A stretch of DNA of 64,000 nucleotides from Oxyruncus cristatus (lineage: Eukaryota > Chordata > Aves > Passeriformes > Cotingidae), in NCBI GenBank assembly GCA_013399855.1, contig VXAY01001956.1:1119068-1183067 (forward strand). The letters are read 5' to 3'. The translations under genes and the position numbers were made by a program. Position 1 is the stretch's first letter. Each line of letters opens with the position of its first letter. The notes below the pieces were generated by a model. It was not told where the DNA came from and did not search any database. It worked only from the letters and a program-made list of their open reading frames with translations. Positions 58,640 to 61,140 of this stretch are shown piece after piece.

Positions 58640-60974
58640 GCTAGGTTTTACATATTTTATTCATAAAAACAGATTTGCAACAATTTATTAAAAATTGATC
58701 TCATGCAGTATAAGGTTATACAAGAAATTCTTCATTTACATTTTATTCTGGCAGTTCCAGTCTAGTTTAAAGCATTGTGCACTAACATCATTGGAAAATG
58801 CCATTGGGGCACAGCCTCTTCATAAATTTACAGTACATTTTTGCTGCAGTATAAAAGAACAGAAACATTAAATAGCTATATTCACTTGGTTGGTCTTGTT
58901 ATCTGCAGTAAAGTAAAAAAAAAATGTTATGGGAGAAACTACAGTATCATTGAGACAAAGAATGTACTGCATGGTTTAAACCTAATAAACGTCACACAGT
59001 CAGTATTCACGAAGTTACAGACACACACACACACACACACACACTCACCTCCAATGGTCCGATACTTCTGATTTTTTTTTCCTGCTAAGTTGGAATAATA
59101 TTTCTACAGAGATCTTTGTGTATACATTATATACAATATTGTAATTTTCTCTTTTTAAAAATTAACATTCCTTTTAAAATAAACCAGGCCCTGATGATAT
59201 TAATAAAGCAAGAGAATACTGTCAACACACATTGAGTGACAACGTCAGTGTTTAGTGCTTAAACAGAGTAATGAGTTCTATTTTATCTGTGTTTATACTT
59301 ACAGGTTTTTTTTGTTCTAAAAGCTACAGATATTTCCATACCCTCTCTTACTGTATGTGCCAAGTGAAATATTTTGTGATGCTCCTGATTGTAAGATTCC
59401 GATACATATTCATGTTGGTTTTGGCCACTATGAGGTGTGTTTTATTTTTAATGGAGATTTACGCTAGCTTGTCAAAGCTGCAATTAAGTCCCTCAGCTAA
59501 TGAACCCCTTCAACTGTGCTTCAGTCATCGCTGATTTGTAAACCTTTGTAGCTATGTCATTTCAAAGGTTTGGTCTGAGGTGCACACGTGTTGGTCAAAG
59601 AAAACTGAGAGCCCAGTGGGTGCTTCATGTGTTTTTTCCCCCCTACTTTCAGCAAACAGGCCTGGAAGTCAGAGGACACATTTCCAGTCCCTTGGGAAAA
59701 GAAGCTGCATGTGTGTCCCACCTGTGCCTGAGGATTTGGCTCCAGAGTTGGTCCAGACGGTACACTGCTATCGTTCCTCCTAATTGCTTCGGTTCAGGGA
59801 ATGGAGCTAAAGTATAAAACCCTTTGTTTTGTTTTTTTCACAGTCCTTTTAGACTTCAGATAAAATATTCTACTGGTAAATTGGATTTGTCCTCTCTATT
59901 ATCTGCTACAACTGTCACACACAGGTACGAAGCAAACATAGTGTATATTCACATCTGTGTGCTCTGCAGGCTTTGCCTGCAGCAGCAAAGTGCTGTGCCC
60001 TAGCCCCTCCCCCTCCCCAAGTCAACTAAATTAATTTTATTGTAATTATGTGTGACACAATTCAAACAAACTAGGAAAAACAATTCATCCTGTGACATTA
60101 AGACTTTACTACCCATCTGTCCTCAGTTTCCTGAGTTATCAGCCCTAGGACTCTTCCAGACAGTTTAGTATGTTACGCTTGGTGGTGTTTATTCTGAAAT
60201 AGGTGCAAAAACTTTGCTAAAAATGAAGCTGCAGATGGTCAGCAGTTACTACCATTGCCCCTGGAGAAGGGCAAAGCGCTCCTCTTGCAGCCAACAGCTC
60301 TCCAGCTGGTGGCAACTCAGAGCTGGAGCTTCAGGCTCTGCTTGGGTTTCACACACAGCTGCAAGTTAGAGGTGACCCTACTCACAGCACTGTGGAGTCT
60401 CAATGACACCTGAGGAATCATTTCTCACAATTCCTTCCTACTGAACATCATCACCTGAAATGAAAACAAGTAAGACTAACCAGTGCAGAATGTTTCCAGT
60501 GATTTTACACAACTCTTGTAAAAATGAGTGTTTCTATTTCAACAGGGTATAGCTCAACCACTACATTTTCCTTACATGGATACAGTATAGAATTGCATGT
60601 TCTCAGCAGCCACACAAAGCTCAGTGACATTTGAGTGTTTGGTTGTTTTTTTTTTCCTAGTGTCTTTTTTGCAAGATCCGTATTTCCCAGCCTCCTTGTT
60701 GCTAGTAGAAATTCTGGAAGAAACATTTTTTTTTCAGTGACTTCTATGTAAAGAAATAAAAACTCCATGAATAAGGCTACAGATCAAACTCCTTGTGTCC
60801 TTCTCCTTTGCCTTCCCACATGAGTTACACGGGCACTCCTGTGACGAGGGCCTCAGCGGCAGTTCCTCTGTGGTAAGAGCCAATGTTACATGTTTGTAGC
60901 AGAGTTCCAGGTCAGATGTTTAGTCCAGTCATTGAGTACTTAAAAGCAGTTCAGGAAGCACTGATCTCCCTTTC
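58640..60974 (-). other. Candidate 3' UTR of an unidentified minus-strand gene
   Basis: Downstream (minus strand) of the candidate terminal coding exon lies about 2.3 kb of AT-rich sequence with no competing coding signal, ending near two minus-strand AATAAA hexamers at 58,684-58,689 and 58,656-58,661. A (CA)12 run at 59,021-59,044 lies inside. The length and composition fit a vertebrate 3' UTR. It depends entirely on the exon call beside it. Confidence 0.4.
59021..59044. repeat. (AC)12 microsatellite
   Basis: Twelve perfect AC dinucleotides. Confidence 0.97.
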
Positions 60975-61140
60975 CTACAGCCCCGAAACCATCACTCGGA
61001 AGGAGGGCGGCACGTGTCTGTGCCGAGGGCTGGCACTGGGGCTTACGCACGGACTGGCACAGCTCGCATCCACTCCTCCTATGGACGGCAAGTAGGCATG
61101 GTGAAGGATGGGCAGCTGCAAGGACAGCCGACGCTGTATG
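60975..61140 (-). CDS. Candidate terminal coding exon of an unidentified gene
   Basis: On the minus strand the intron ends with a branch-point-like GGCTAAC, a long CCCCCCTCTCTCTCTGTCTCTC tract broken only by G, and CAG at 61,143-61,141. The exon that follows has one leading base and then 54 sense codons and TAG. Its protein includes RRLSLQLPILHHAYLPSIGG and SPSASPRHRHVP and ends FRVMVSGL. About three quarters of third codon positions are G or C and CpG is frequent, in contrast to the AT-rich surroundings, which supports real coding in this frame. The last three residues, SGL, fit a class I PDZ ligand (S/T-x-hydrophobic). I do not recognise the protein. Preceding exons must lie further right, and none is recognised before 64,000. 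Confidence 0.45.

What the first reader, a model, noticed from the sequence alone, without database searches (positions are those of the whole stretch)
58640..61140. A second, unnamed gene ends here on the minus strand, tail-to-tail with ELP2
The sequence directly shows a very strong minus-strand 3' splice site (GGCTAAC, long CT tract, CAG at 61,143-61,141) followed by a GC3-rich 54-codon frame ending in TAG, then 2.3 kb of AT-rich sequence ending at two AATAAA signals. The C-terminal SGL would fit a class I PDZ ligand. In human the genes next to ELP2 on this side (MOCOS, FHOD3) are on the same strand as ELP2, so a convergent gene would be unexpected and could reflect a rearrangement or a poorly annotated gene.
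Basis: partly seen in the sequence, partly recalled or inferred. Interest (0 to 1): 0.75.

Follow-up and report, generated by a model that had tools for sequence, protein, structure and literature searches.

The report
Last exon of bird GABBR2 gene
The unnamed gene is an ordinary one: the final exon of the brain receptor gene GABBR2 (GABA-B receptor subunit 2), which in this bird-like genome lies next to ELP2, probably because gene blocks were rearranged between birds and mammals.

Summary
The 54-codon frame at 61,139-60,978 (minus strand, stop TAG 60,977-60,975) is the terminal coding exon of GABBR2, GABA-B receptor subunit 2. It matches the C-terminus of GABBR2 in PDB 6w2x chain B at E 2.2e-29, 52 of 54 residues identical. 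Nine of 9 database candidates match; the two whose source names are informative are both called GABBR2. Six of those 9 look like unspliced readings that meet the exon at the same AG|C boundary, three like spliced forms, so splice site and phase appear conserved. The suspected PDZ ligand is the documented GABAB2 VSGL motif (PMC9810740, passages). ELP2 is on the plus strand but stops at 20,883, so the genes converge across about 38 kb. In human they are on different chromosomes (recalled), so the junction is a synteny break; published chicken positions of neighbouring genes place members of both blocks on chromosome 2. Ordinary gene; low interest.

The parts
61141..61177 (-). 3' splice region: branch-point-like GGCTAAC (61,174-61,168), polypyrimidine tract, CAG acceptor (61,143-61,141)
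   Evidence: Read directly; one of 5 of 9,460 AGs scoring at least as high by a crude score; same AG|C boundary inferred for 6 of 9 homologous readings
60975..61140 (-). terminal coding exon of GABBR2: last base of a split codon (His in the spliced relatives), 54 codons, TAG stop
   Evidence: PDB 6w2x_B residues 855-908, E 2.2e-29, 52 of 54 identical; 9 homologues of 9 candidates, 2 of them named GABBR2 by a source
61122..61133 (-). RRLS, fits PKA site S892 of GABAB2 (if the protein has 940 residues)
   Evidence: Residues 3-6 of the exon peptide; role of S892 from passages of PMC10456889
61092..61094 (-). Tyr codon, fits Y902, the residue needed for KCTD binding
   Evidence: Residue 16 of the exon peptide; residues 1-26 align without a difference to the GABAB2 peptide chain 6m8r_K; role from passages of PMC3750179
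60978..60989 (-). C-terminal VSGL, known PDZ-binding motif of GABAB2
   Evidence: Last four residues; motif stated in passages of PMC9810740
58640..60974 (-). probable 3' untranslated region with AATAAA at 58,689 and 58,661 (end inferred)
   Evidence: Follows the stop; AT-rich, CpG-poor; end not proven, AATAAA also at 60,193, 60,041, 59,446 and 58,747
61141..64000 (-). part of the last intron of GABBR2 (inferred), running off the window; holds a CR1-like repeat copy at 63,823-63,908
   Evidence: Preceding exon not found by tblastn with the upstream parts of P0005 and P0007, best 5 hits per query seen; repeat family D1
420..20883 (+). ELP2, 15 collinear coding segments spanning residues 221-826 of the recalled human protein, to the stop TAG at 20,881-20,883
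   Evidence: tblastn with recalled human ELP2, each of the 15 at E 0.001 or better; stop located

Best explanation
The feature is the 3' end of the GABBR2 gene on the minus strand: the end of its last intron, its terminal coding exon (61,140-60,975) and its 3' UTR (to about 58,640, inferred). The exon encodes the distal cytoplasmic tail of the GABA-B receptor subunit 2. By homology this tail binds KCTD auxiliary subunits through a conserved tyrosine, is phosphorylated by PKA at the RRLS serine, and ends in a PDZ ligand bound by scaffolds such as MUPP1. Shown here: exon, frame, boundary and protein match. Inferred: expression, the functions in this species, the 3' UTR end, and linkage to the rest of the gene. 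GABBR2 lies beside ELP2 because blocks that are on different chromosomes in human (9q and 18q, recalled) are joined in this genome.
For: E 2.2e-29 to GABBR2 of PDB 6w2x_B, ending at the same C-terminal residue, 52 of 54 residues identical. 9 of 9 candidates in the protein database match over 93-100% of the query; P0005 and P0007 are named GABA-B receptor subunit 2 (or 2-like) by their sources. Six of these 9 read Ser before IQRR, as an unspliced AG|C reading would, and three read His, as the spliced form would, so acceptor and intron phase match the window. Strong acceptor. ELP2 on the plus strand with stop at 20,883. Chicken GALNT12, TGFBR1 and NR4A3 (human 9q22) are listed on chicken chromosome 2 (PMC1876622 table), and chicken Mocos lies at or beside the chromosome 2 region 85.52-86.07 Mb with Tert and Irx4 (PMC9170765 section).
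Against: Only one GABBR2 exon lies in the window; the preceding exon was not found (all frames, one frame), so linkage to the rest of the gene is inferred. No RNA evidence; no bird genome was compared; the own-genome search did not complete. The chicken table does not list GABBR2 or ELP2 themselves. No paper seen states the GABBR2-ELP2 adjacency (listings). On the PDZ motif, PMC5343488 passages call the physiological role of MUPP1 binding unknown, and PMC9810740 passages find the motif neither sufficient nor required for anchoring to actin.
Confidence: 0.97

Rival explanations
1. A detached or duplicated terminal exon of GABBR2 (segmental duplicate or pseudogene fragment), with the working gene elsewhere.
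For: Only the last exon is in the window; the preceding one was not found within the 2.86 kb to the right.
Against: Intact frame, 52 of 54 identity, a strong acceptor and a CpG-retaining exon in CpG-poor flanks. A last intron longer than 2.86 kb is enough to explain the missing exon.
Confidence: 0.02
2. An unknown or poorly annotated bird gene convergent with ELP2, as first proposed.
Against: The frame is GABBR2 residue for residue apart from two conservative changes.
Confidence: 0.005
3. The exon is GABBR2, but the GABBR2-ELP2 neighbourhood is an assembly join error rather than a real synteny junction.
For: Two short N runs lie in the interval (38,031-38,053 and 49,464-49,465), so the stretch is not gap-free.
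Against: In chicken, genes of the human 9q22 block and MOCOS (human 18q12, recalled) are reported on the same chromosome 2, which makes a true junction plausible.
Confidence: 0.04

Closest known systems
GABBR2 (GABA-B receptor subunit 2), e.g. PDB 6w2x chain B
   Same: 54-residue C-terminal exon, 52 of 54 residues, same C-terminus, same splice boundary and phase as inferred from other readings
   Different: Two substitutions (exon residues 28 V to A and 35 T to S, structure to window); neighbour is ELP2 instead of the human 9q22 neighbours (human order recalled)
GABAB2 peptide in PDB 6m8r (chain K)
   Same: Exon residues 1-26 aligned without a difference
   Different: Nothing over the aligned stretch; binding not tested here

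Membership tests
GABBR2 (GABA-B receptor subunit 2) | C-terminal tail sequence of GABAB2 | tested here: met
   E 2.2e-29, 52 of 54 identical
GABBR2 (GABA-B receptor subunit 2) | Terminal exon boundary and phase 2 intron as in other vertebrates | tested here: met
   Of 9 homologues, six read as unspliced with AG|C and three as spliced with His; inferred from protein letters, not from DNA of those species
GABBR2 (GABA-B receptor subunit 2) | VSGL PDZ ligand, RRLS PKA site, KCTD-binding tyrosine | tested here: met
   Present in the sequence; roles from PMC9810740, PMC10456889 and PMC3750179 passages
GABBR2 (GABA-B receptor subunit 2) | Venus-flytrap domain, seven transmembrane helices, coiled coil encoded upstream | not testable with these tools
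   These exons would lie beyond 64,000; own-genome search not answered in 7 tries
GABBR2 (GABA-B receptor subunit 2) | Continuation into the exon just before the last one, upstream on the same strand | tested here: inconclusive
   Not found in 61,141-64,000: of the best 5 hits per query, the only one there was a 16-residue plus-strand match at E 2.8; the exon may lie beyond the window

The most novel reading that the evidence does not exclude
The junction of the GABBR2 block and the ELP2 block is special to this species' lineage and not shared with chicken, so that the 38 kb between them holds a recent, undescribed rearrangement breakpoint.
Probability: 0.07. Interest if true: 0.25.

Novelty: already known. 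Interest (0 to 1): 0.08.

Why it matters
It settles a doubtful call: the supposed unnamed gene is GABBR2, and the exon keeps the regulatory residues of the mammalian receptor tail almost unchanged. The only broader point is the gene order, which puts a break of synteny with human somewhere in 20.9-58.6 kb of the window.

Tried and rejected
Pfam gives no family for the exon, as expected for a short tail. Rfam gives no match in the window at gathering scores and ARAGORN finds no tRNA. Three plus-strand frames over about 15 kb (43,600-58,601), stops as X, matched nothing in the PDB at E 0.01, which fits ELP2 ending at 20.9 kb. One of the three minus-strand frames over 61,100-64,000, not the exon's, matched nothing in the PDB at E 10. 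A recalled human MOCOS protein has no credible hit in the window (best E 2.8), so MOCOS does not follow ELP2 here. Ten long ORFs (8 from the ELP2-GABBR2 interval, 2 from the right end) gave no Pfam family above its cut-off; 4 of the 10 had weak matches at E 0.019-0.076. The interval was not searched exhaustively for genes. I first supposed from memory that the block was Z-linked; the table of PMC1876622 lists GALNT12, TGFBR1 and NR4A3 (human 9q22) on chicken chromosome 2, so I dropped that. Three papers hold both GABBR2 and ELP2; by their titles they are on newborn screening, epilepsy and stem cells, and I did not open them.

Full report
What is there. On the minus strand the window shows GGCTAAC, a CT-rich tract and CAG at 61,143-61,141, then a frame of 54 codons from 61,139 to 60,978 with TAG at 60,977-60,975. 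The first exon base, C at 61,140, belongs to a codon split by the intron. The acceptor is one of 5 of 9,460 AGs in the window, both strands, that score at least as high by a crude score. The exon keeps CpG (0.68 of expectation) while its flanks do not (0.20 and 0.14), and 38 of 54 third positions are G or C.

What it is. The peptide matches the last 54 residues of GABBR2 in PDB 6w2x chain B at E 2.2e-29, 52 of 54 identical with two conservative differences. Its first 26 residues align to the GABAB2 peptide chain of 6m8r with no difference. In the large protein database 9 of 9 candidates match (E 1.3e-23 to 3.5e-9); one is named GABA-B receptor subunit 2 (P0005, Ataeniobius toweri), one subunit 2-like (P0007, rabbit; it lacks 8 residues of the tail), one is an uncharacterized pufferfish protein (P0002), and six carry no name.

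Splice boundary. In six of those 9 (P0001, P0003, P0004, P0006, P0008, P0009) the residue before IQRR is Ser and the letters further upstream differ, as expected if a prediction ran from the intron through AG|C. In three (P0002, P0005, P0007) it is His after SPE, the spliced form. The window also reads Ser there when unspliced. So acceptor and phase agree; this is inferred from protein letters, not from DNA of those species.

What the exon does. This is inferred from the mammalian receptor. The RRLS serine is exon residue 6 and the tyrosine residue 16, which become 892 and 902 if the protein has 940 residues (that this is the rat length is recalled). PMC10456889 passages state that PKA phosphorylates GABAB2 S892 and that this stabilises receptors at the surface. 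PMC3750179 passages state that Y902A abolishes KCTD binding. PMC9810740 passages name VSGL a PDZ-binding motif, though neither sufficient nor required for anchoring to actin. PMC3920572 passages report that MUPP1 interaction with GABAB2 helps keep the receptor stable at the membrane, whereas PMC5343488 passages call the physiological role of MUPP1 binding unknown.

3' end. After the stop come 2.3 kb of AT-rich sequence. The UTR end is plausible, not shown.

Neighbourhood. ELP2 was located with a recalled human protein: 15 collinear plus-strand segments from 420 to 20,880, spanning residues 221-826, each at E 0.001 or better, with a TAG at 20,881-20,883. Three plus-strand frames across the last 15 kb before GABBR2 matched nothing in the PDB. 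The two genes converge across about 37.8 kb. No credible MOCOS hit was found in the window.

Gene order. In human ELP2 is on 18q12 and GABBR2 on 9q22.33 (recalled). PMC1876622, whose tables I read in full, lists GALNT12 (9q22.33), TGFBR1 and NR4A3 (both 9q22) on chicken chromosome 2, while XPA (9q22.3) and CDC14B (9q22.33) are on Z; GABBR2 and ELP2 are not in those tables. PMC9170765, one section and passages read, places Mocos at or next to the chicken chromosome 2 region 85.52-86.07 Mb, with Tert and Irx4. Both blocks thus have members on chicken chromosome 2, and MOCOS has other neighbours there. The simplest account is rearrangement between the bird and mammal lineages. The GABBR2-ELP2 adjacency itself was not found in print in my searches (listings) and was not checked in another bird genome.

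Verdict. A correctly seen gene end, misjudged as unnamed. It is the last exon of GABBR2 and ordinary.

Noticed in passing
27,925-28,010; 36,235-36,320; 48,510-48,595; 63,823-63,908: Four copies of an 86-base repeat (three of them 67-81% identical to the first) that looks like avian CR1 (name recalled); a further copy seems to lie inverted at 53,382-53,566 against 48,411-48,595, 78% complementary.
   Followed up: partly
46,794-47,231 (+): A 145-aa open frame resembling retroelement-related predictions of birds (recalled); no Pfam family above its cut-off.
   Followed up: partly
38,031-38,053 and 49,464-49,465: Short N runs, each right after a T homopolymer.
   Followed up: no
20,884-58,640: About 38 kb between ELP2 and GABBR2 in which I recognised no gene, without an exhaustive search; MOCOS, which follows ELP2 in human (recalled), has no credible hit. 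The break of synteny with human should lie here.
   Followed up: partly
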